21,878 nt of DNA from Opitutales bacterium (GTDB lineage: Bacteria > Verrucomicrobiota > Verrucomicrobiia > Opitutales > JAIRKQ01): assembly GCA_029059365.1 (NCBI GenBank), contig JAIDVZ010000195.1, positions 1 to 21,878 of the forward strand, read 5' to 3'. The position numbers and the translations under genes are program-made. The notes under the pieces are model-generated. The model was given only the letters and a program-made list of their open reading frames with translations. It made no database searches and was not told where the DNA came from. Numbering within the stretch: position 1 is the first letter of the stretch; each line of letters starts with the position of its first letter. Shown here piece after piece: positions 4,686 through 21,839 of the stretch.

Positions 4686-5565
4686 GAAAAAATGGATATT
4701 GGTAGACGGACATAATTTAGCATTCCGGTGCTTTTATGGCGTTCCCGACATGACACGTTCTGATGGGTTACATGTTAATGCGATTTACGGATTCATCCGA
4801 ACATTGATGAAGCTAAATTCGACTTATACCCCAGATGCAATCTGTGTATTTTTCGACACAGATGGGTCCAAGGTACGCAAACATGAATTATCCACTTACA
4901 AGGCAAATCGTAAAAAAATGCCAGTCGAACTTGTCGAACAGATTCAAATTTTGCCATCGTTGGTAATTTCAATGGGATATTATGTTGATCAGCATAGCGG
5001 CATCGAAGCAGATGATCTCATCGGCATGTATGCAAAAAAGATCGCAAACGAGGATGAGATTGCATATATTGCGAGCGCAGATAAGGATTTTGCTCAATGT
5101 ATATCAAAGAATGTTTTTCAACTACTTCCACCGGTAAGTAAATCAAAAACTTCTAATTGGAAATTGCTCGACCATAACGGTGTCATCGAAAAATATGGCC
5201 TGCGCCCCGATCAAATGGTAGATTATTTGGCACTGATTGGAGACTCCGCTGACAATATTGACGGTATTCCCGGGGTTGGTCCAAAAACTGCTACAAAATG
5301 GCTGAAAGAATTGGGAACCATAGAATCAATATATGATAATATCACAAAAATTTCACCGATTAGATTTCAAGATATTTTGCTAGCAAACAAAGAGCTCGTT
5401 TATCGCAATCAGCGCCTCATAACACTACAAGAATACAACGATTTTAATTTACCGTCTGCGGAGCATAAGCCGGACATGTTAGCATTTGAAAAACAACTAC
5501 AAGAAATCGGACTTTTTTCTATTGCGCGCGAGATCAGGAAGGAAAATCAGAGGGAATTATTTTAA
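4669..5565 (+). CDS. Stand-alone 5'-3' exonuclease (Pol I N-terminal-domain family)
   Basis: A 298-residue flap endonuclease/5'-3' exonuclease equivalent to the N-terminal domain of DNA polymerase I, without the polymerase. It probably removes RNA primers or flaps, or acts in repair. Visible metal-binding acidic residues are D13 (LVDGHN), D63 (VFFDTDG), E113/D115/D116 (GIEADDLIG), D138/D140 (SADKDF) and D192/D195 (IGDSADNI). The helix-3-turn-helix GIPGVGPKTATKW at 199-211 binds DNA. The arginine/lysine clamp is represented by KANRKKMP (78-85). All key acidic positions are intact, so it should be active. The ATG lies inside the end of the upstream membrane-protein gene. The 3' end overlaps the convergent uppP by 9 bases. 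Whether a full PolA with its own exonuclease domain exists elsewhere cannot be seen here. Confidence 0.92.
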   Translation: MNTQNKKKWILVDGHNLAFRCFYGVPDMTRSDGLHVNAIYGFIRTLMKLNSTYTPDAICVFFDTDGSKVRKHELSTYKANRKKMPVELVEQIQILPSLVISMGYYVDQHSGIEADDLIGMYAKKIANEDEIAYIASADKDFAQCISKNVFQLLPPVSKSKTSNWKLLDHNGVIEKYGLRPDQMVDYLALIGDSADNIDGIPGVGPKTATKWLKELGTIESIYDNITKISPIRFQDILLANKELVYRNQRLITLQEYNDFNLPSAEHKPDMLAFEKQLQEIGLFSIAREIRKENQRELF

Positions 5566-12119: not shown

Positions 12120-12246
12120 TAAATCAGTTTTTCAATGCAAAATTTAGCGTACCTTTACGTGGACAAAACATCTAATACCTCAGTAAATTTCCACTATAGT
12201 TTATTTTGTACTTTATTTTCTGATAAAAAATCTTACACTGGACGTG

Positions 12247-15200
12247 ATGGATGACCTTAAAAATACGCTTGGTATCGATAAGTGCGGACATAATATTTCA
12301 CTAACCGCAGAAGATATCGCAGCGATAAAAAACCAATTAATGCAATTAGGGCAGCCAACCTCTACCGAAATATTCGAGGTTCTCGGTAAAAATAAACAAC
12401 CCAAAAATATCGAGCGCGCACCGGTAGATATAAGAATTGAGAACTTCCTAAACGAATTTCTTAAAGATACAATCGAGAACAAACAAACATGGTTACCCAA
12501 AACAACATTCGTTTGTCGAAAACATGGGGTTTCTCGGATATTGTCATTGCCGGAAGACGCAGATGAATTTCACTCAGAATATGTCGATAGCTATCGTGTA
12601 TATCAGGGAATATTAAATAATCCATCAACTGATAAACGCACAACAGCAAAATCATTCCATATAGTTGAAGGTGGACCAATAGTACAAATCGATAAAATTG
12701 AAGTACCTAAAATCGCGTTTGCTAATATGCTTAAACTGGCATTCAACCCACCGGATGATATGCTAATTTTGCCTTTCTCTTCCAAACAACAGACCAAAGC
12801 TAAGCTATTTGTATCAGCATACCTTAAACCAACCATCTGCCCAGGTGTACCTGGAATAATGTCCGAAAAAAACATGGAAATACGGATGTTTGTGCCTGGT
12901 AGTTTAGTGAGTATATTGGACTGCACAGAGAGTATATTCGGTAATGCAGGATCTCCGTTTATACCGAAGAACGATGCAGCAATGGACCCACAATTATGGT
13001 CAGGTTATACTGGATGTATAGTATTTGCACCACAACTTAGACATGTAACAAAAAAAGCATTAGGGTTGCCCCATGTTTCGGAAGCAACCGAGCGTCAAAA
13101 ACGTGAAGGTATGTGCTGGGAGGATGAAAACGAGATTTATCATGATGGACAGCCATTCCGTGTAGTCGCTAGAACTGGTGGTAATGTAATAGTATCTATC
13201 GTAGCAGACAGCTACAACGGATATGGCAAAAAAGAGGTAAAGACGCAAATATCGTACGCAGCAAACATGTATGGATTGTGCGAAGAGGAACATTCTGGTG
13301 GAACACTCGTATTTCCACAATATAACCTCGGGGATGAATTCAATCATGATAAATTTTTAGGAGCACAGACAACATTCAAGGATCTAGTTGATATAAATGT
13401 TTCAAATATGGAGCTCCAACCAGGTGGATATGCAATTGATAAAAATTACCCGAATATTGTTTATGTCCCTGGCACTGCAACATTTTGTTTACCAAAATTA
13501 CAAATTTCTTGGCAGATGCACGATGCTGAGCAGACACTATTGTTTGAATTGGGCAAAACGTATGTTTTACCAAGTGGATATCAGATACATCTGGAAAAAC
13601 CAGTTGGAGAGGACATGCGCTGGAAAATGATCGGTACTCACCCAGATACAATATTTTGCTACAAACCAGCTACAGTATCCGGTGGCGGGAAATCCGAAAT
13701 CGCTAAGCCATTATCTGATGCGATAATTCATGGCCCGATGGTCATAACAGACTATAAAAAAGATTTTCAACTAGCAGACGAAATTTTACATCGTGATTAT
13801 TCAGATCGATTTATTGATAAGAGCATAGTGGATGACAGAGGTATACTTTCTGAAAAACGTACTTTAGGTTCGGTAATAAAGCTGTTAAATTTTAATACAA
13901 AATACACCGAAGAATATAATAACTGGTTAAAAACCATTCCGGCACACATCAGAGAATTAGTGTTTGCAATAAAAACTTTTTACAAACCGTCTTGGGGAGA
14001 TAATTGGCAACAATATTTTTCGGTAGATATTATTAATGGGCAATACGGGAATGAGCTAAAATACAAGCAGGAGAATTTATCCGAACAGTATGTACGTATC
14101 GGGTATACACCTGACAAAAATTGGCGAAAATTTTCTTTACGTGATGATTTTCATCCGGCTTTTAAACTACAGCTCGCAGATGATATAACAACAACCGTCA
14201 CGATACCAGCAAAGGGTATTTTGGGATTAAGTATAGAAAATGATTCTTTATCTGTTAAATTTGTAAAAAATTGTGAATATCGACTATACCAACGTCCAGA
14301 TGAAGCAGTAGTCCCAGGATATGACCACGAAACTGAGTATGAAATTTCACAGCCAAATACATTTACGTGTAACTATAAGCCATTAACACGCGCAGATGTT
14401 CAAAATATCATAAATAATCGTATACAGTTTGAGAAGTATACCTCTCCGATGAAAACTTTACTAACAAATTTTGTAAACGATCCAAGCGCTCCACAATATA
14501 TTGTCTGCCCATCTGAGTTACGTGTCATGCCAAGCGGAGAGATTTCAAAAAATAAACGATACCTTCAAAATCGACAGGATATCACCAATCATGAAGCAGT
14601 ATATCTTTCGAAATTGGCGGTTAAATTGCACAAAAAGTTACCACATATCGAGAGTGTAAAATTTCCGGTGCAAGCAATCTTAAGTGGAAGACGAAATAAT
14701 CCACCCGAACAGGGAGTACGTCCACTAAGTGTGTACAGCCCGTTGCATTATATGGACTTACCAGAATTGTTCATGGAGTACATATCCAGTATGACCGGGA
14801 AATCTCCATCTACCACAGGTGCAGGATTAGAAGGTGCAATGACAAAGGGCCCATTCAATCCTCTGAGTTTCATATACGATCTAAATAATGCCTTATTGTC
14901 ATTCATTTTATGTGATTTTCATGGATTCTTATCATCTGCTGGATATGTCGGTCCACACTTCGTAGTCGAACATGATATAACATACATCTTACCTGAAATA
15001 TGGTCACGTATGCAGGCACATGAGCGAAATCCACGCTTTCTGATTGAACATGAATATCTCGAAAAATGCAATGATTTTACATATGAGGGGCGTAATATTC
15101 CATTCAGTCGGCTTGGATATCGAATCTCCAAAAAATTTGTTAAAATATTTGCAGGACGTGTATTATCTTTCCCAGATTCGTTGTTCACAGACGATATCCT

Positions 15201-15639
15201 TCACCCAGAAGATCAGGATAAAGATATCTTCGTAGACAGCATGGATAATATCACTGAGTCACACAAAAATGCAGCGAATATCATACTAGACAGCGGAGAA
15301 ATTGAAAAAGCGATACCACCGCTAATGACTCTACTTTACATAATGCGCGATGGATCACATGACGGTATGAATTTATCATCTGAACGATTCCGTAGCATGT
15401 TCAACAGACAGAACGTTCTTAGCAGCAATTGGTATCACGCACGATTAGAAAGCAAGCAACAAAGCTATATTGAGCACCTGAAAAATGGGCAAAAATATTT
15501 ACAAGAATACATCAGTGCACACGAACTTAGCGAGGATGTTAGCGATTTTGAACAAAATCTCAATTGGACAAATGATGAATTAGTCCGCGTCACTTCTCCG
15601 GACTATATAAATCGTTTAGTGGGAACAATCGGGAGATGA
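12247..15639 (+). CDS. Large cytosolic protein, candidate PPi-dependent PEP carboxykinase
   Basis: A 1130-residue soluble protein without signal peptide, membrane segments or obvious repeats. Length and the most conserved-looking stretch, SSMTGKSPSTTGAGLEGAMTKGP (about 853-875) followed by FNPLSFIYDLNNALLSFIL, match what I remember of the diphosphate-type phosphoenolpyruvate carboxykinases of Entamoeba and Propionibacterium and their PVC-bacterial relatives. That enzyme interconverts oxaloacetate plus PPi with PEP, Pi and CO2. The assignment rests on memory of length and motif and is not verified; a generic large hypothetical protein is the fallback. GKSPSTTGAG resembles a phosphate-binding loop. 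Further conserved-looking blocks are GRVLSFPDSLFTDDIL and SNWYHARLESKQQ. ATG 12247 follows directly on an alternative GTG (12244); there is only a weak TGGA upstream. The gene stands alone and ends at a strong terminator. Confidence 0.6.
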   Translation: MDDLKNTLGIDKCGHNISLTAEDIAAIKNQLMQLGQPTSTEIFEVLGKNKQPKNIERAPVDIRIENFLNEFLKDTIENKQTWLPKTTFVCRKHGVSRILSLPEDADEFHSEYVDSYRVYQGILNNPSTDKRTTAKSFHIVEGGPIVQIDKIEVPKIAFANMLKLAFNPPDDMLILPFSSKQQTKAKLFVSAYLKPTICPGVPGIMSEKNMEIRMFVPGSLVSILDCTESIFGNAGSPFIPKNDAAMDPQLWSGYTGCIVFAPQLRHVTKKALGLPHVSEATERQKREGMCWEDENEIYHDGQPFRVVARTGGNVIVSIVADSYNGYGKKEVKTQISYAANMYGLCEEEHSGGTLVFPQYNLGDEFNHDKFLGAQTTFKDLVDINVSNMELQPGGYAIDKNYPNIVYVPGTATFCLPKLQISWQMHDAEQTLLFELGKTYVLPSGYQIHLEKPVGEDMRWKMIGTHPDTIFCYKPATVSGGGKSEIAKPLSDAIIHGPMVITDYKKDFQLADEILHRDYSDRFIDKSIVDDRGILSEKRTLGSVIKLLNFNTKYTEEYNNWLKTIPAHIRELVFAIKTFYKPSWGDNWQQYFSVDIINGQYGNELKYKQENLSEQYVRIGYTPDKNWRKFSLRDDFHPAFKLQLADDITTTVTIPAKGILGLSIENDSLSVKFVKNCEYRLYQRPDEAVVPGYDHETEYEISQPNTFTCNYKPLTRADVQNIINNRIQFEKYTSPMKTLLTNFVNDPSAPQYIVCPSELRVMPSGEISKNKRYLQNRQDITNHEAVYLSKLAVKLHKKLPHIESVKFPVQAILSGRRNNPPEQGVRPLSVYSPLHYMDLPELFMEYISSMTGKSPSTTGAGLEGAMTKGPFNPLSFIYDLNNALLSFILCDFHGFLSSAGYVGPHFVVEHDITYILPEIWSRMQAHERNPRFLIEHEYLEKCNDFTYEGRNIPFSRLGYRISKKFVKIFAGRVLSFPDSLFTDDILHPEDQDKDIFVDSMDNITESHKNAANIILDSGEIEKAIPPLMTLLYIMRDGSHDGMNLSSERFRSMFNRQNVLSSNWYHARLESKQQSYIEHLKNGQKYLQEYISAHELSEDVSDFEQNLNWTNDELVRVTSPDYINRLVGTIGR

Positions 15640-15754: not shown

Positions 15755-16402
15755 CTACCGATTTTCGATATACGATTTAAATCGGCTTGAAACAGCATCC
15801 CAGTTGACAACTCGCCAGTACGCTTCGATATATTCCGTCTTGCGATTATTGTATTTTAAGTAGTATGCATGCTCCCAAAGATCTAGCAGTAGTATCGGGT
15901 ATCCAGCACGTTGTACATGGTTGACCATCAGTGGATTATCATGATTGGATGTTGAGCATATAAACAATTCATCTCGCTTTTCTAAGCCCGCACATAACCA
16001 TGTCCAGCCAACCCCTAGGTGGGATAATGCCGATTTTTCGACCTGCTTCTTGAGCCCATCTAAACCACCAAATGCTTGTACAACCGCGTCCGATAATAAA
16101 CCAACCGGAGTACTCGCTCCACCAGGGGATATCATTCTCCAAAACAGATCATGATTGTAGTGCCCACCAGCATTGAACCGGACACGCGAACGAAAATCAT
16201 CACTGCCTGGCAGTGTATCGATCTTAGCAATGAGCTCTTCTAGTGAAGAAGGAGCATGAATACCATTTTCTGCCAAAAGGCTGTTTAATTTATCGATATA
16301 AGCGGCATGATGTTTATCATGGTGTAGATGCATCGTTTTTTCATCAAAATTTGGCTCCAGAGCATCATATGGATATCCAAGTTCATTTAATCTATAAGAC
16401 AT
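15755..16402 (-). CDS. sodA: Superoxide dismutase (Fe/Mn family)
   Basis: Cytosolic Fe/Mn-type superoxide dismutase of 215 residues. Metal ligands are H27 (MHLHHDKHH), H84 (GGHYNHDLFW), D174 and H178 (LDLWEHAYYLKYNNRK); Tyr35 is the conserved second-shell tyrosine. GGHxNH is Mn-like. However, the position that is Gln in typical Mn enzymes (TANQDSPL) is His154 here (TSNHDNPL), so the metal could be Mn, Fe or either. The start is ATG 16402, because GGAGG lies five bases upstream; an ATG one codon earlier (16405) is too close to it. An open frame continues upstream to 16498, but that would overlap nrdA and lacks conserved sequence. It follows nrdA by 67 bases on the same strand and may share its transcript. 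Confidence 0.93.
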   Translation of the reverse strand: MSYRLNELGYPYDALEPNFDEKTMHLHHDKHHAAYIDKLNSLLAENGIHAPSSLEELIAKIDTLPGSDDFRSRVRFNAGGHYNHDLFWRMISPGGASTPVGLLSDAVVQAFGGLDGLKKQVEKSALSHLGVGWTWLCAGLEKRDELFICSTSNHDNPLMVNHVQRAGYPILLLDLWEHAYYLKYNNRKTEYIEAYWRVVNWDAVSSRFKSYIENR

Positions 16403-16469: not shown

Positions 16470-19400
16470 CTAACGTGAATAATCACGCAAACGATCAAGT
16501 GCGTTCAACACAGCGCTTGTACCATCATCATCGTTATCTCGCGAACTTTTACCGAGCATAAAACCAGCAGATTTTACATCATGTATAGACTTGATTCCGC
16601 TTTTCCACGCATTAACAAACATTTTCGATAATGCATGTAGATTAGGAGCCGCTAAAAACAGCCGAATCGATTGTGCCTGATCTATCCACTGCTGAACAAT
16701 GGATGCCTGTGCAATCAATACCTCGGTATCAATCATAAACGCAGTACAGTATAAATTTTTAATATCATCCGAAATCTCATCAATTGCAGCTAATTCACCC
16801 TCAAAATAACGAATCTGCTTATGTATCTCTTTGTTCCAGAATTCATGTTTTTTCAGCGTATTCACTAGTTCTTGGCTAATTACCATCATCTCGTGGTTAC
16901 CAGAAAGTGTCTTAGTGAAAACGTTACGTGTAGCCGGGGTAAGGCCAGGATAACATCCCATCAAACGTGATATTTTTCTGGTCGGAGAATTGGCATTTAG
17001 ATAAGCATTTCGTATGCCATACTTCTTTAAATCCTGTCTAATATGGTCCCAATCAAGCGCAGTTTTCACTCCCTTTGGGGCAAAATCCATGGGTAATTTC
17101 CCGAGTTTCCATTCAGTATCGTTATAAACTGGACAAGGACCTGATTTCTTGGCCAATGCAATCGACTCTTCAATCGTGTCGTATGAAAGATGCTCGAAGC
17201 ATTCATTAATAAATTTTAATGTTTGCTCACTGTTGAATGGCAAATTTTTATGATAAAGTGCATTTTGGAATCCCATGATGCCAAGCCCGATCGCTCGATA
17301 CTTTTCAGCAAATATACGAGATGCTTTCGTTGGATAAAAATTGACATCAACAATCGAGTCAAGTGCACGCACCGCTATACGCACAGTTTCTCGCAATTTT
17401 TCATGATCAAGTGTACCATCTTGGCGCAAATGTTTACTAATATCTAACGAACCTGTGTTACACACTGCGGTTTCATCAACAGATGTGTTCAGCACGTGCT
17501 CTAGACACAAATTTGGAGAATGAATAACCCCATTTTTGCACATATTCGATCGGTTACAGGTGTCCTTAAACGCGATCTTTGGATAGCCCGTCTCGAAGAT
17601 TCTTTGCATGATTTTTTGCCACAATTCCGGTGCGGATAAACGCTTGGAGAATATTTCTCCATTGATCGCTTTTTTTTCAAACTCCAGATAAGCTTTTTCA
17701 AATTCTTCACCGTACAGATCGTGCAGGCTCCTTACATCTGCTGGATTAAATAATGTCCAATCTTCATTTTCTTCCAGCCGTTTCATGAACAGATCGGGTA
17801 TCCAGAGTACAGTCCCTAATTCTTCGCTATGTACACCGGCATAGCTACTCTTCTTTTTATAATCAATGAAATCTTGAACATCACAGTGCCAGATCTCCAA
17901 TGCTGCTATTCCACGCCCGCGTCTGCGTTCCGTTCCTTGGTTCGCAACCGCTAATTGATGCTGATGAAGCTGCAAAAAGGGGATTATCCCGGGAGAATCA
18001 CCTCGCGTACCCTTTATCCTCATTCCATGTCCACGGACATTTGTCCATGATCCACCTACGCCACCTCCCCACTTCGAGATAAACGCATTGTCCGCAATAC
18101 CACGCCCCATGATACTCTCTAAATCATCTTCTATGTGGTAAACATAACTTGCACACATCTGTGCCTTTGGCGTTCCTGCGTAGTATAACGTCGGAGTTGA
18201 TAAACAAAAACGTCGATCTTTCAATAAATTGTACAGAGCAATGACATCATCTTCCGAACGATCCTTTGTCAGAAACACGCCCATAGCAACACGCATCCAA
18301 AGCATCTGCGGGGTTTCCAAAATTTTCTGTTCTCCATCACGCAATAGGTAATTTTCGACCAAACTTTGTAGGGCAATCGCATCGAACTTGAAGTCAGCAC
18401 ATACATCAAGCACAGTGGCTAGCTTACCGAGATCATATTTCAACATGTCCTTATTAAGCAGACCGGACTTCACACCGTACTTAATATATTTTTCAAACAC
18501 TGCTATCTGCTTCTCACGCAATCTATCCATGCCGTCGGTCATGCAGTGCCAGTCAAAAATTTCTTCATACAAATATGACAGTTGTATACGAGCGGCAAAA
18601 ATCGCAAATCCAGGATCCTTCTCAATCAACCCACGGGCATTTTCAATGATCCGTTCTCTAAGAGTCTGATTATCAATCTCATTTACTATTCCATCGCGCA
18701 ATGACCCAACGACCTCATCATGCGTCAAATGCGAATCAATCCCTTCATGTGCAAACATTATTCGTGCCTGCAAATCAGATCCATCCCATAAGAAGCTCTC
18801 GCCATCGCCCTCTTTTATTAAGATTATTGATTCTTGATATCCTGCATCACCAGAAGATTCTTCCAATGTGTCAGCACGCATACGGGCACGCTGAGCACGG
18901 TATAAAATATATGCTTCTGCGACTTTGAAAAAACCTGCACGCATGAGTTCTTCCTGTACAGCATTTTGAACATCCTCGATATCGACAAAAGATAGTCCAG
19001 CTTCGATGATATTGCACGTCACCGCATCTGCAATCTTGGCAGCTGGCGCAGGGTCCTGATTAACTGACAAAAATGCTTGAGCAACCGCATGCTCAATTTT
19101 CGATTTATTCCAAGGCACGACTTGTTTATTCCGACGAATGAGCTTTATCGTCGGGCTACAACGACAAGAATTGTTATAATCTTCACGCTCAAGACGCTTT
19201 TTCATGACGAAACTACGGGCAATATCGTTCCTCTCATTGCGCACTAAGATTTCCTCAATTATATTATCAAGCTCGCTGCTGCTCAGTGTGTGGGTTTTAT
19301 ATTTCGTACTTTCCAGCGCAACAGCTGATACCATATTAGCAACTAGCTGCTTATTCTCTTTCGTGAAAATATCGGACTCTCCACGTGATAAGCAAACATT

Positions 19401-19562
19401 CGTCAGTGCTTCACCAATCTCCCGCGCAACATTGGCAAGATTACATTCTGGATGAGCATCTTTTGCAACGACTATCTTCTCCCAACGAAAATTCGGTTTT
19501 TCCTCATTAGGGGTAGAAATTAAACGTTTGAGTTCCAAATTTTCCTTCGCGTCTATAAACAT
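16470..19562 (-). CDS. nrdA: Class I-like ribonucleotide reductase large subunit (NrdA), atypical
   Basis: Reduces ribonucleotides to deoxyribonucleotides. From ATG 19562 it has 1030 residues, much longer than E. coli NrdA (761) and near the Chlamydia length. There is a degenerate ATP-cone-like region (about 24-122), a clear ATP cone (137-230: IKLIRRNKQVVPWNKSKIEHAV) and a third cone-like segment (245-335). The barrel follows, with STPTLYYAGTPKAQ, the thiyl-radical motif PNLCLE (N684, C686, E688) and AVCNTGSLDI (C701). Odd points: the first redox Cys position is Ser472, with Cys470 two residues before. The two radical-transfer tyrosines are replaced in GIKSIHDVKSAG (H994-D995). The last ~35 residues have no cysteine. 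No nrdB is in the window. A TTG at 19598 is open, but it overlaps a TTGACT promoter-like hexamer, so I prefer the ATG. It lies downstream of nrdD and upstream of sodA. Confidence 0.88.
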   Translation of the reverse strand: MFIDAKENLELKRLISTPNEEKPNFRWEKIVVAKDAHPECNLANVAREIGEALTNVCLSRGESDIFTKENKQLVANMVSAVALESTKYKTHTLSSSELDNIIEEILVRNERNDIARSFVMKKRLEREDYNNSCRCSPTIKLIRRNKQVVPWNKSKIEHAVAQAFLSVNQDPAPAAKIADAVTCNIIEAGLSFVDIEDVQNAVQEELMRAGFFKVAEAYILYRAQRARMRADTLEESSGDAGYQESIILIKEGDGESFLWDGSDLQARIMFAHEGIDSHLTHDEVVGSLRDGIVNEIDNQTLRERIIENARGLIEKDPGFAIFAARIQLSYLYEEIFDWHCMTDGMDRLREKQIAVFEKYIKYGVKSGLLNKDMLKYDLGKLATVLDVCADFKFDAIALQSLVENYLLRDGEQKILETPQMLWMRVAMGVFLTKDRSEDDVIALYNLLKDRRFCLSTPTLYYAGTPKAQMCASYVYHIEDDLESIMGRGIADNAFISKWGGGVGGSWTNVRGHGMRIKGTRGDSPGIIPFLQLHQHQLAVANQGTERRRGRGIAALEIWHCDVQDFIDYKKKSSYAGVHSEELGTVLWIPDLFMKRLEENEDWTLFNPADVRSLHDLYGEEFEKAYLEFEKKAINGEIFSKRLSAPELWQKIMQRIFETGYPKIAFKDTCNRSNMCKNGVIHSPNLCLEHVLNTSVDETAVCNTGSLDISKHLRQDGTLDHEKLRETVRIAVRALDSIVDVNFYPTKASRIFAEKYRAIGLGIMGFQNALYHKNLPFNSEQTLKFINECFEHLSYDTIEESIALAKKSGPCPVYNDTEWKLGKLPMDFAPKGVKTALDWDHIRQDLKKYGIRNAYLNANSPTRKISRLMGCYPGLTPATRNVFTKTLSGNHEMMVISQELVNTLKKHEFWNKEIHKQIRYFEGELAAIDEISDDIKNLYCTAFMIDTEVLIAQASIVQQWIDQAQSIRLFLAAPNLHALSKMFVNAWKSGIKSIHDVKSAGFMLGKSSRDNDDDGTSAVLNALDRLRDYSR

Positions 19563-19613
19563 GATTTCTGAATTAAATTTTAATAAACGAACAGTCAACT
19601 ATTCGTGGCAAAA

Positions 19614-19688: not shown

Positions 19689-21839
19689 TTAACTAGCTTT
19701 CGCACATTCACAAAGCTCGTTGGTATCAAAACACAAACTTGTACGCATTTTGAACTCCGCTTGTTTACCATCGTTCCATTGCTGCACCGGACGTAGATAA
19801 CCAACAATACGTGAATATATCTCCGTTTTCTTTCCACAATGTGGACAAACCGATTGCTCACCAGATAAATAACCATGCTCTGGACAGATCGAAAAAGTCG
19901 GGGTTAAAGAATAGTACGGCAATTTATAGTTTTGGGCAACCTTCCGGACCAACTCCTTTACGACATTCTTGTCCGATATACGCTCACCGAGGAATAAATG
20001 TACAACTGTACCACCAGTAAATTTCGTCTGTAATTCATCCTGATGATCCAACACCGCGAACAAATCATCGGTATAATTCACCGGTACATGTATTGAATTT
20101 GTGTAATACGGCACATCGTTATCATCTCTTTGTCTATCCTCATTGGCAGCTAAAATGGCATTCCCAAAACGACTTTTATCTTTTCTCGCCAATCTAAAAG
20201 AGGTGCCTTCAGCCGGGGTAGCCTCGAGATTATAATGGTTACCAGTCTTTTTCTGATACTCCAAAATTTTAGCACGCATAAAATCCAACACCTCAAGTGC
20301 GAATGCTTTGCCCTCCGGTGTTGTGATATCCTTTTTCAGGAAATTCAAACATGCCTCGTTCATGCCGACCAACCCGATCGTTGAAAAGTGATTCTTCCAA
20401 TACTTTCCAAAACGTTCAAAGATATGTTTGAGATAAAATGTCGTATAAGGATATAAATTAGACGCTGTCAATTTCTCCAACAGCTCACGCTTAATTTCCA
20501 AACTTTCACTGGCGAGATCCATCAAATTTGATAGACGTGATAAAAACTCTTCCTTAGATTTCGACAAAAACCCGATTCTTGGGAGATTGATAGTAACAAC
20601 TCCTACACTACCGGTCAAAGGATTAGCTCCAAACAACCCACCTCCGCGTTTATCGAGTTGAGTATTATCGATACGCAAACGACAACACATCGAGCGTGAA
20701 TCTTCCGGATTCATATCCGAATTGATAAAATTCGAAAAATAAGGGATACCATACTTACCGGTCATTTCCCAAAGTCCATCGAGATTAGGATTATCCCAAT
20801 CAAAATCCTTGGTCAAGTTGATGGTTGGGATTGGGAAAGTCATTATTCGTCCACGAGCATCCCCGTTGGTCATCACCTCAAATAATGCTCGATTAAAAAT
20901 ATCCATCTCATTCTGGAATTCAGAATATTTATTCTCCTTCATCTCGCCACCGATAATAACCGGCTCATTTGCCAGGTGCTTCGGACAAAACAGATCAAGT
21001 GTAATATTAGTGAATGGGGTTTGAAATCCAACCCTGGTTGGAACATTAATATTAAAAACAAATTCCTGTAACGCTTGTTTTACTTGTTCAAAGGTCAAAT
21101 TATCAAAACGAATGAAAGGCGCAAGCAAGGTATCAAAATTCGAAAATGCCTGTGCACCTGCAGCTTCTCCCTGCAAGGTATAAAAGAAGTTCACAATTTG
21201 GCCAAGTGCTGTACGCAAATGTTTTGGTGGACGAGCTTCAATTTTACCAGACACCCCACAAAATCCTTCACGCAACAAATCCGCCAAGTCCCAACCAACA
21301 CAGTATACTGATAATTGATTGAGATCATGTATATGAAAATCACCCGATTCGTGAGCATCGCGTATGCGTGATGGATAAACACTGTTCAACCAATACGTCT
21401 GACTTAATGCCCCGGACAAATAATGATTCAACCCTTGTAAAGAGTAGCTCATATTGCTGTTCTCACGTACCTCCCAGTCCGCACGGGAAATATATTGATT
21501 AATTCTCTCAATTTCGGCCTGCTTAGCGATTTCCGGCAAACGATTCCTACGATCGCGTGCCAAAATAAATGTTTTGGCAGTTACATGATATCTAGATAGC
21601 ATCAATGTCTGCTCGATAAAATCTTCAATCTGGTCGATACTTGGCTCATTATTCGGACAATATTCCCAAATTTTGGCAATTACTTCACGTGTGAGATCCC
21701 ATGCGACCTCCGATCCGTATTCATGTGTCGCCTTCCCAGCCTCAAACAAAATCTGGTAAATTTGACCATGAAGCATGACCTCACGTGACACTTCTTGGAC
21801 CACACCACACGAACAATCTCTTTTCCTTGTTTTCTCCAT
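19689..21839 (-). CDS. nrdD: Anaerobic (class III) ribonucleoside-triphosphate reductase
   Basis: Oxygen-sensitive glycyl-radical enzyme that makes dNTPs without oxygen, after activation by the radical-SAM protein NrdG (not in this window). The 716 residues comprise an N-terminal ATP cone (about 23-100, lacking the usual first strand), the barrel with GDFHIHDL, SMCCRLRID (C385, C386) and RGGGLFGANPLTGSVGVVTINLP, and a zinc site at C652, H655, C665 and C668. In this site the first CxxC is CxxH. The radical glycine is G680 in RIVGYLRPVQQWNDGKQAEF. Beyond that is an extra tail with three cysteines (SLCFDTNELCECAKAS) of unknown role. The ATG at 21839 has no clear ribosome binding site; only 39 bases upstream are in the window. 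A terminator-like hairpin separates it from nrdA. Confidence 0.95.
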   Translation of the reverse strand: MEKTRKRDCSCGVVQEVSREVMLHGQIYQILFEAGKATHEYGSEVAWDLTREVIAKIWEYCPNNEPSIDQIEDFIEQTLMLSRYHVTAKTFILARDRRNRLPEIAKQAEIERINQYISRADWEVRENSNMSYSLQGLNHYLSGALSQTYWLNSVYPSRIRDAHESGDFHIHDLNQLSVYCVGWDLADLLREGFCGVSGKIEARPPKHLRTALGQIVNFFYTLQGEAAGAQAFSNFDTLLAPFIRFDNLTFEQVKQALQEFVFNINVPTRVGFQTPFTNITLDLFCPKHLANEPVIIGGEMKENKYSEFQNEMDIFNRALFEVMTNGDARGRIMTFPIPTINLTKDFDWDNPNLDGLWEMTGKYGIPYFSNFINSDMNPEDSRSMCCRLRIDNTQLDKRGGGLFGANPLTGSVGVVTINLPRIGFLSKSKEEFLSRLSNLMDLASESLEIKRELLEKLTASNLYPYTTFYLKHIFERFGKYWKNHFSTIGLVGMNEACLNFLKKDITTPEGKAFALEVLDFMRAKILEYQKKTGNHYNLEATPAEGTSFRLARKDKSRFGNAILAANEDRQRDDNDVPYYTNSIHVPVNYTDDLFAVLDHQDELQTKFTGGTVVHLFLGERISDKNVVKELVRKVAQNYKLPYYSLTPTFSICPEHGYLSGEQSVCPHCGKKTEIYSRIVGYLRPVQQWNDGKQAEFKMRTSLCFDTNELCECAKAS

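What the first reader, a model, noticed from the sequence alone, without database searches (positions are those of the whole stretch)
16470..19562. Class I-type NrdA without the radical-transfer tyrosines or the C-terminal redox cysteines
Seen: the active-site core matches class I (PNLCLE, then Cys 15 residues later as in human R1). At the C-terminus, the position of E. coli Tyr730-Tyr731 (GVKTLYYQNTRD) reads GIKSIHDVKSAG. The last ~35 residues, where the redox Cys pair normally lies, contain no Cys. Known: class I enzymes pass the radical from the small subunit through these tyrosines, and thioredoxin or glutaredoxin reduces the tail cysteines. Inference: this protein either receives its radical another way, uses another reductant, or has become non-catalytic. 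The conserved reading frame over 1030 residues argues against a pseudogene. It could represent an undescribed reductase variant.
Basis: partly seen in the sequence, partly recalled or inferred. Interest (0 to 1): 0.72.

Follow-up and report, generated by a model that had tools for sequence, protein, structure and literature searches.

The report
Repurposed NrdA lacking its catalytic machinery
A family of tiny-genome bacteria keeps, under strong selection, a large-subunit ribonucleotide reductase that has lost its partner subunit and several residues needed to make DNA building blocks, so it probably does a different job.

Summary
The protein (1030 aa, window 16470-19562, minus strand) has the class I NrdA fold, but His994-Asp995 sit at the E. 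coli Tyr730-Tyr731 positions and the tail has no Cys. All 26 full-length clade members found (the window's own and 25 relatives) lack Tyr731, C225 and a terminal Cys pair. All 11 genomes searched in this GTDB family carry the variant, none has a detectable nrdB, and 10 of 11 carry class III nrdD and 10 of 11 NrdG2. dN/dS (ten closest pairs) is 0.045-0.071, close to nrdD in the same family (0.039-0.062, six pairs). So it is neither a sequencing error nor, here, a decaying pseudogene. NrdA-like proteins in four other small-genome families of the order also lack the dyad, and 14 of 15 examined lack Cys439. Best reading: a class I NrdA freed from ribonucleotide reduction when class III took over, and kept for a non-reductase, nucleotide-binding role. 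The role is inferred. A bolder reading is weak but not excluded: a glycyl-radical enzyme using the conserved K-x-[AT]-G-F just after the lost Tyr pair.

The parts
16470..19562 (-). nrdA-derived gene (nrdA'), 1030 aa; alternative TTG start at 19598 less likely (clade members are 1030-1058 aa as predicted in the database)
18885..19145 (-). ATP-cone domain (PF03477, 80.8 bits), retained
18165..18389 (-). Ribonuc_red_lgN all-alpha domain (PF00317)
16584..18149 (-). Ribonuc_red_lgC barrel (PF02867, 493 bits)
18147..18149 (-). Ser472 at the position of E. coli Cys225 (redox partner lost); Ser in 26 of 26 clade members
17499..17513 (-). finger loop N684-L-C686-L-E688 = E. coli N437/C439/E441, retained here (N684 is Gly in 14 of 26 clade members)
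17460..17462 (-). Cys701 = E. coli C462, retained
16974..16979 (-). Arg862-Lys863 replacing Ala-Thr of P-T-A-T-I (substrate-phosphate loop, role recalled), fixed in the clade
16578..16583 (-). His994-Asp995 in place of the radical-transfer Tyr730-Tyr731 (in a strand in the model)
16560..16574 (-). K997-S-A-G1000-F1001; K, G and F invariant in 26 of 26; resembles a glycyl-radical motif
16488..16526 (-). new C-terminal segment (D1013 and L1022 invariant in 26 rows; predicted helix, mostly low confidence) where ordinary NrdA has its Cys pair
19689..21839 (-). class III nrdD directly upstream, same strand, with glycyl motif SRIVGYLRP

Best explanation
The gene descends from an ordinary class I NrdA of the Opitutales type. 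In a genome-reduced lineage the class I system was replaced by class III NrdD plus activase NrdG2, and nrdB was lost (shown as non-detection in the surveyed, incomplete genomes). Without a radical-supplying partner, the radical-path Tyr pair, the redox cysteine C225 and the C-terminal redox tail disappeared (shown). The protein was not discarded: it evolves under purifying selection similar to nrdD (shown), its ATP-cone and barrel persist (shown), and residues around the substrate and specificity loops were replaced and then fixed (shown by sequence; the roles of the loops are recalled). Inferred: it now works as a non-reductase, nucleotide-binding protein, most likely an ATP/dATP- or NDP-sensing regulator or scaffold in dNTP metabolism, perhaps acting on NrdD through the new C-terminal segment. 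My confidence in that specific role alone is about 0.3; the score below is for 'repurposed, no longer a ribonucleotide reductase'.
For: nrdB: 0 of 11 genomes of the GTDB family, while the same search finds it in 5 of 5 same-order genomes with canonical NrdA that I included (G005, G010, G017, G079, G100). Variant NrdA 11 of 11; nrdD 10 of 11; NrdG2 10 of 11. YY, C225 and terminal Cys pair lost in 26 of 26 clade members. [quoted passage not shown] that it is the C225 equivalent is my recall. dN/dS 0.045-0.071 (ten closest of 55 f1 pairs) versus 0.039-0.062 for nrdD (six of nine pairs, three saturated). Fixed replacements of otherwise invariant residues are concentrated in active-site and specificity segments: 16 of 61 versus 28 of 331, p = 2.5e-4. 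Sister families lack Cys at the C439 position: f25 7 of 7, f27 2 of 3, f28 4 of 4, f12 1 of 1. nrdD is adjacent in 3 of 3 genomes of this genus where the contig allows a check.
Against: C439, E441 and C462 are kept in 26 of 26 clade members, which a pseudoenzyme need not do (167 of 392 canonical-invariant positions are kept, so three of three is only mildly surprising). Six of 26 members, this one included, have a Cys two residues before the lost C225 (Cys470; the other 20 have Met), and other fixed cysteines (675, 870) exist, so a substitute is conceivable. Absence of a Cys at the finger-loop tip does not prove inactivity: T. maritima class III RNR lacks it and is active (PMC4493059). No direct evidence for any nucleotide binding or regulatory role. 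Adjacency to nrdD is not conserved in the second genus. dN/dS is about three times that of canonical nrdA (0.018-0.025, four pairs); the nrdD comparison rests on pairs of the second genus, as pairs with the window's own genome were saturated. The segments were chosen after seeing the table, so its p value is optimistic. Family genomes are 83-93% complete. The pattern 'nrdB or nrdD' is not general: G059 has class I genes and nrdD, and one search shows ATP-cone ORFs of nrdD-like length in other canonical genomes, not checked.
Confidence: 0.62

Rival explanations
1. A class I-derived glycyl-radical enzyme: NrdG2 (or another activase) puts a radical on Gly1000 of K-x-[AT]-G-F, which passes it to C686 in place of the Tyr dyad; the substrate may be a nucleotide or something else.
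For: K997, G1000 and F1001 invariant in 26 of 26 and Ala at -1 in 25 of 26; the pattern resembles glycyl-radical motifs (nrdD here: SRIVGYLRP; other motifs recalled). C439, E441 and C462 kept. An activase exists in 10 of 11 genomes. [quoted passage not shown]
Against: Most ordinary relatives already have LRTLGA here, so the Gly is largely ancestral. The AF2 model keeps a strand over the dyad, with residue 1000 matched to E. coli 736, outside the dyad; the model is biased by canonical rows and its finger loop is low-confidence. Sister families f25 and f27 lack the Gly. Profile comparison with NrdD gave no meaningful alignment. Only one NrdG2 above cut-off per genome, explained by nrdD.
Confidence: 0.1
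2. A decaying relic: a former nrdA slowly lost after replacement by nrdD, with no present function.
For: Six genomes of one genus (f27 g46) have nrdD and no detected NrdA, as expected at the end of such decay; f25 has dN/dS 0.185 (one pair) and f28 about 0.16 (two pairs near saturation); the C439 position differs within f27 (P0241 Cys, P0232 and P0250 Gly).
Against: In the window's own family the frame has no internal stop in any of the 11 genomes and dN/dS is close to nrdD; bacteria with 0.7-0.9 Mb genomes would be expected to delete a useless 3-kb gene (inference).
Confidence: 0.12
3. Still a ribonucleotide reductase with an undetected, very divergent radical generator or cofactor and a different cysteine reductant.
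For: C439, E441, C462 and the barrel are kept; new cysteines (C675, C870 in 26 of 26; C470 in 6 of 26) could replace C225.
Against: nrdB undetected in 11 genomes; no second PF02867 gene; NrdJ model score 319.5 below its cut-off of 399.95; C225 lost; nrdD already present to supply dNTPs.
Confidence: 0.1
4. A host-directed protein, by analogy with herpesvirus R1 proteins that act on host pathways.
For: A CesT-type chaperone gene lies two genes upstream in a sister genome (L095 5051-5566, Pfam), and a similar ORF in L034. [quoted passage not shown] two passages seen).
Against: A Na+/H+ antiporter gene lies between; no secretion signal was tested; no such chaperone is seen beside the gene in this window (ORFs only).
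Confidence: 0.04

Closest known systems
Class I NrdA of Verrucomicrobiota (P. aeruginosa 5im3 is the nearest solved sequence)
   Different: No Tyr dyad, no C225, no terminal Cys pair, no nrdB detected, changed substrate and specificity segments
Class III NrdD
   Same: K-x-[AT]-G-F resembles the glycyl motif; same genomes; adjacent gene in the window's genus
   Different: No PF13597 match, no meaningful profile alignment
Herpesvirus R1 homologs with non-reductase roles
   Same: R1 used for functions besides reduction (PMC12282084, start of abstract)
   Different: Viral and host-targeting; loss of catalysis in betaherpesvirus R1 is recalled, not checked here
NrdA-like proteins of sister small-genome families (f12, f25, f27, f28)
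   Same: No YY; no nrdB detected (0 of 9 genomes); nrdD in 8 of the 9 genomes that carry the protein; f25 and f27 tails may share a short motif with this clade
   Different: 14 of 15 examined lack Cys at the C439 position; the window's clade keeps C439/E441/C462 in 26 of 26

Membership tests
Class I ribonucleotide reductase alpha (NrdA) | R1 fold with barrel and ATP-cone | tested here: met
   NCBIfam TIGR02506 533.4 bits over cut-off 341
Class I ribonucleotide reductase alpha (NrdA) | Tyr730-Tyr731 radical-transfer dyad | tested here: not met
   His-Asp here; YY in 0 of 26 clade members
Class I ribonucleotide reductase alpha (NrdA) | active-site redox pair C225-C462 | tested here: not met
   C225 is Ser in 26 of 26; C462 kept
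Class I ribonucleotide reductase alpha (NrdA) | C-terminal Cys pair | tested here: not met
   two Cys in the last 16 residues: 0 of 26 clade members, 256 of 259 homologs with the full canonical residue set
Class I ribonucleotide reductase alpha (NrdA) | thiyl-radical cysteine C439 with E441 | tested here: met
   26 of 26
Class I ribonucleotide reductase alpha (NrdA) | partner NrdB encoded in the genome | tested here: not met
   0 of 11 genomes by PF00268, all incomplete
Class II (NrdJ) | curated NrdJ model cut-off | tested here: not met
   TIGR02504 319.5 bits, cut-off 399.95
Class III (NrdD) / glycyl-radical enzyme | NRDD family match (PF13597) | tested here: not met
   not among matches at E 1e-3
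Class III (NrdD) / glycyl-radical enzyme | glycine placed next to the thiyl cysteine | tested here: inconclusive
   invariant Gly1000 near the dyad, but the model keeps the class I arrangement; coordinates not available
RNR pseudoenzyme | loss of residues required for catalysis together with purifying selection | tested here: met
RNR pseudoenzyme | no reductase activity | not testable with these tools
   needs protein

The most novel reading that the evidence does not exclude
In this bacterial family a class I NrdA has been converted into a glycyl-radical enzyme: after losing NrdB, the strand that once carried the Tyr pair now ends in a conserved K-x-[AT]-G-F whose glycine is charged by the resident activase and feeds C686, with a rebuilt pocket for a new substrate or the triphosphate form.
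Probability: 0.07. Interest if true: 0.95.

Novelty: new variant of a known kind. Interest (0 to 1): 0.64.

Why it matters
RNR is a highly constrained enzyme, and the automatic name (TIGR02506 is passed; database names read 'ribonucleoside-diphosphate reductase subunit alpha') would wrongly give these bacteria a working class I RNR. A bacterial lineage that keeps a de-catalysed NrdA under strong selection, with sister lineages at further stages (C439 lost, gene absent), would be a natural series of an essential radical enzyme being repurposed or dismantled. It makes testable whether NrdA has a second, non-catalytic function, and whether class I and class III radical chemistry can interconvert.

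Tried and rejected
Sequencing error or frameshift: rejected, 25 relatives share the features. Diverged nrdB missed: the PF00268 search rings in five same-order canonical genomes, in G059 and in 7 of 14 controls, but in 0 of 11 family genomes; a partner outside PF00268 is not excluded. Tyr pair elsewhere: structural alignment puts 994-995 at 730-731. In one search I labelled residue 470 as the C225 position; the alignment with solved structures and one search showed it is 472. I first took the variants of other families for independent losses (tree, midpoint root); the later tree places all 18 variant rows on one side of a branch against 18 canonical ones (SH-aLRT 100), so a single loss is possible; long branches make the count unsafe. 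Profile comparison with NrdD gave nothing. Replacement of NrdR: matches to NrdR exist in 10 of 11 family genomes, so this idea was dropped. New tail as a mimic of the NrdB tail: NrdB tails read in three canonical loci (fourth masked) do not resemble it. First genome-contig scan found nothing; the second, with an alignment, did. Phage search: the five rows listed are at most 35.5% identical (capped at 5000 records).

Not in print, as far as searched: searches listed no paper on a bacterial NrdA without its catalytic residues (open full texts only; listings seen; searches returned none). Passages of PMC9531940 (12 of 15 places shown) and PMC2795772 did not mention such proteins.

Full report
What is there. 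The gene at 16470-19562 (-) encodes 1030 aa with ATP-cone, all-alpha and barrel domains of class I RNR. It passes the NrdE_NrdA curated cut-off (533.4 vs 341 bits), so it would be annotated as NrdA. Upstream on the same strand lies class III nrdD (19689-21839) and downstream a superoxide dismutase gene. The window is contig C107 of an 843-kb, 203-contig assembly, 89.6% complete. Close relatives are named 'Puniceicoccales bacterium' MAGs; that they are termite-gut assemblies is recall, which no call confirms.

The observation. Key sites in the 1030-aa numbering are S472 (E. coli C225), N684 (N437), C686 (C439), E688 (E441), C701 (C462), H994 (Y730) and D995 (Y731); E. coli roles are recalled. 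The structural alignment of the AF2 model gives the same dyad positions from its end points. In 297 homologs pooled from three searches, each listing at most 120, 259 read CNCECYY. The 26 full-length members of the window's clade (the window's own protein and 25 relatives) read S-[NG]-C-E-C-[HNSY]-[DE] without two Cys in the last 16 residues; one further member is partial (P0027); 11 more are variants from other families. In 80 genome-contig loci, 69 are CNCECYY, one is cut before the dyad and 10 are the variant; these ten appear to be the same genomes as in the next paragraph. So three things that class I catalysis needs are missing together: the radical path, the redox partner C225 and the redox tail. 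In 16 of the 26 a Tyr remains at the Y730 position, but Y731 is always Asp or Glu; His-Asp itself is in 5 of 26.

The genomes. Of 11 genomes in the GTDB family, the variant is in 11, nrdB in 0, nrdD in 10 and NrdG2 in 10. No second PF02867 gene is found. Five same-order genomes with canonical NrdA that I included have nrdB and no nrdD. This pattern is not general: G059 (f26) has nrdB, a distant class I NrdA and nrdD, and I did not survey nrdD in the other canonical genomes. Four other small-genome families have NrdA-like proteins without YY: f12 (G012), f25 (G025, G043, G073; the dyad was read in G025 and G043), one genus of f27 (G029) and f28 (G034, G101, G113, G124). None of these nine genomes has detected nrdB; eight have nrdD (not G073, 68% complete). 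Among proteins examined, the C439 position is not Cys in f12 (1 of 1), f25 (7 of 7), f28 (4 of 4) and f27 (2 of 3). Six genomes of the other f27 genus have nrdD and no NrdA-like gene. Variants form one side of a branch against canonical NrdA, but branches are long.

Selection. For the ten closest of 55 pairs in the family dN/dS is 0.045-0.071; for nrdD it is 0.039-0.062 in six pairs, three further pairs being saturated. In the six matched pairs, all of the second genus, nrdA' is 1.0 to 1.4 times nrdD. Canonical nrdA gives 0.018-0.025 (four pairs with finite dS); f25 0.185 (one pair); f28 about 0.16 (two pairs near saturation). Hence the gene is maintained, somewhat less tightly than a working nrdA. 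Of 392 positions invariant in 74 canonical sequences, 167 stay invariant and 44 are replaced by a residue fixed in at least 25 of 26. The 44 are enriched in segments that I associate from recall with the active site, specificity loops and beta-J: 16 of 61 versus 28 of 331 (segments set after seeing the table). Retention of the old residue is not different between the two sets (23 of 61 versus 144 of 331, p = 0.48). Examples: C472S, N520R, Q524P, G545E, K546R, A862R, T863K, A1001F. The tail carries a new predicted helix with invariant D1013 and L1022, mostly at low confidence.

Mechanism. Shown: no detected nrdB; loss of dyad, C225 and tail; presence of nrdD/NrdG2; purifying selection; retained ATP-cone. 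Inferred: the protein no longer reduces ribonucleotides, and acts as a nucleotide-binding regulator or scaffold, perhaps on NrdD. For NrdD: adjacency in 3 of 3 genomes of the window's genus where it can be checked (G000, G131, G132; G006's contig begins inside the gene). Against: no adjacency in the other genus, where NrdG2 lies about 2.5 kb upstream in two genomes (G134, G098) and part of nrdD on the same contig in one (G110). A caution against reading C439 loss as proof of inactivity: T. maritima class III RNR lacks the Cys at the finger-loop tip and is active (PMC4493059).

The bold alternative. Just after the lost dyad stands [VI]-K-x-[AT]-G-F with K, G and F invariant in 26 of 26. [quoted passage not shown] Against it: most ordinary relatives already read LRTLGA, the model keeps the class I arrangement, f25 and f27 lack the glycine and profile comparison finds nothing. 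I give it 7-10%.

Literature. PMC4493059 (introduction and passages) states that Cys125 of T. [quoted passage not shown] equating it with C225 is recall. PMC9531940 (passages) places the Tyr dyad on strand beta-J next to the catalytic Cys. Searches listed no report of a bacterial NrdA like this one.

Noticed in passing
G026 and G107 (same order, family f26): No match to PF02867, PF13597 or PF00268 in two genomes 95% and 91% complete: possibly no ribonucleotide reductase at all.
   Followed up: no
window 12244-15639 (+): 1131-aa ORF without any Pfam match at E 0.01; an ORF of 1114 aa with a similar start lies beside nrdA' in G132 (L094 4881-8225).
   Followed up: no
L095 5051-5566: CesT-type secretion chaperone gene upstream of nrdA' in a sister genome, between NrdG2 and a Na+/H+ antiporter.
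   Followed up: partly
f27 g46 genomes (G061, G075, G087, G097, G109, G122): nrdD found in 6 of 6, NrdA-like gene in none: apparent end state of class I loss.
   Followed up: partly
window 15755-16402 (-): Mn/Fe superoxide dismutase gene directly downstream of nrdA'; start taken at the Met before SYRLNELG.
   Followed up: no
C-terminal 26 residues of P0225-P0232, P0241, P0250: Sister families f25 and f27 show a short M..L tail motif that may match the new C-terminal segment of this clade (by eye).
   Followed up: no
G059:C1:4900-8134: A same-order small genome with a distant class I NrdA (763-aa frame, 27% identical), nrdB and nrdD together, perhaps a replacement by transfer.
   Followed up: no
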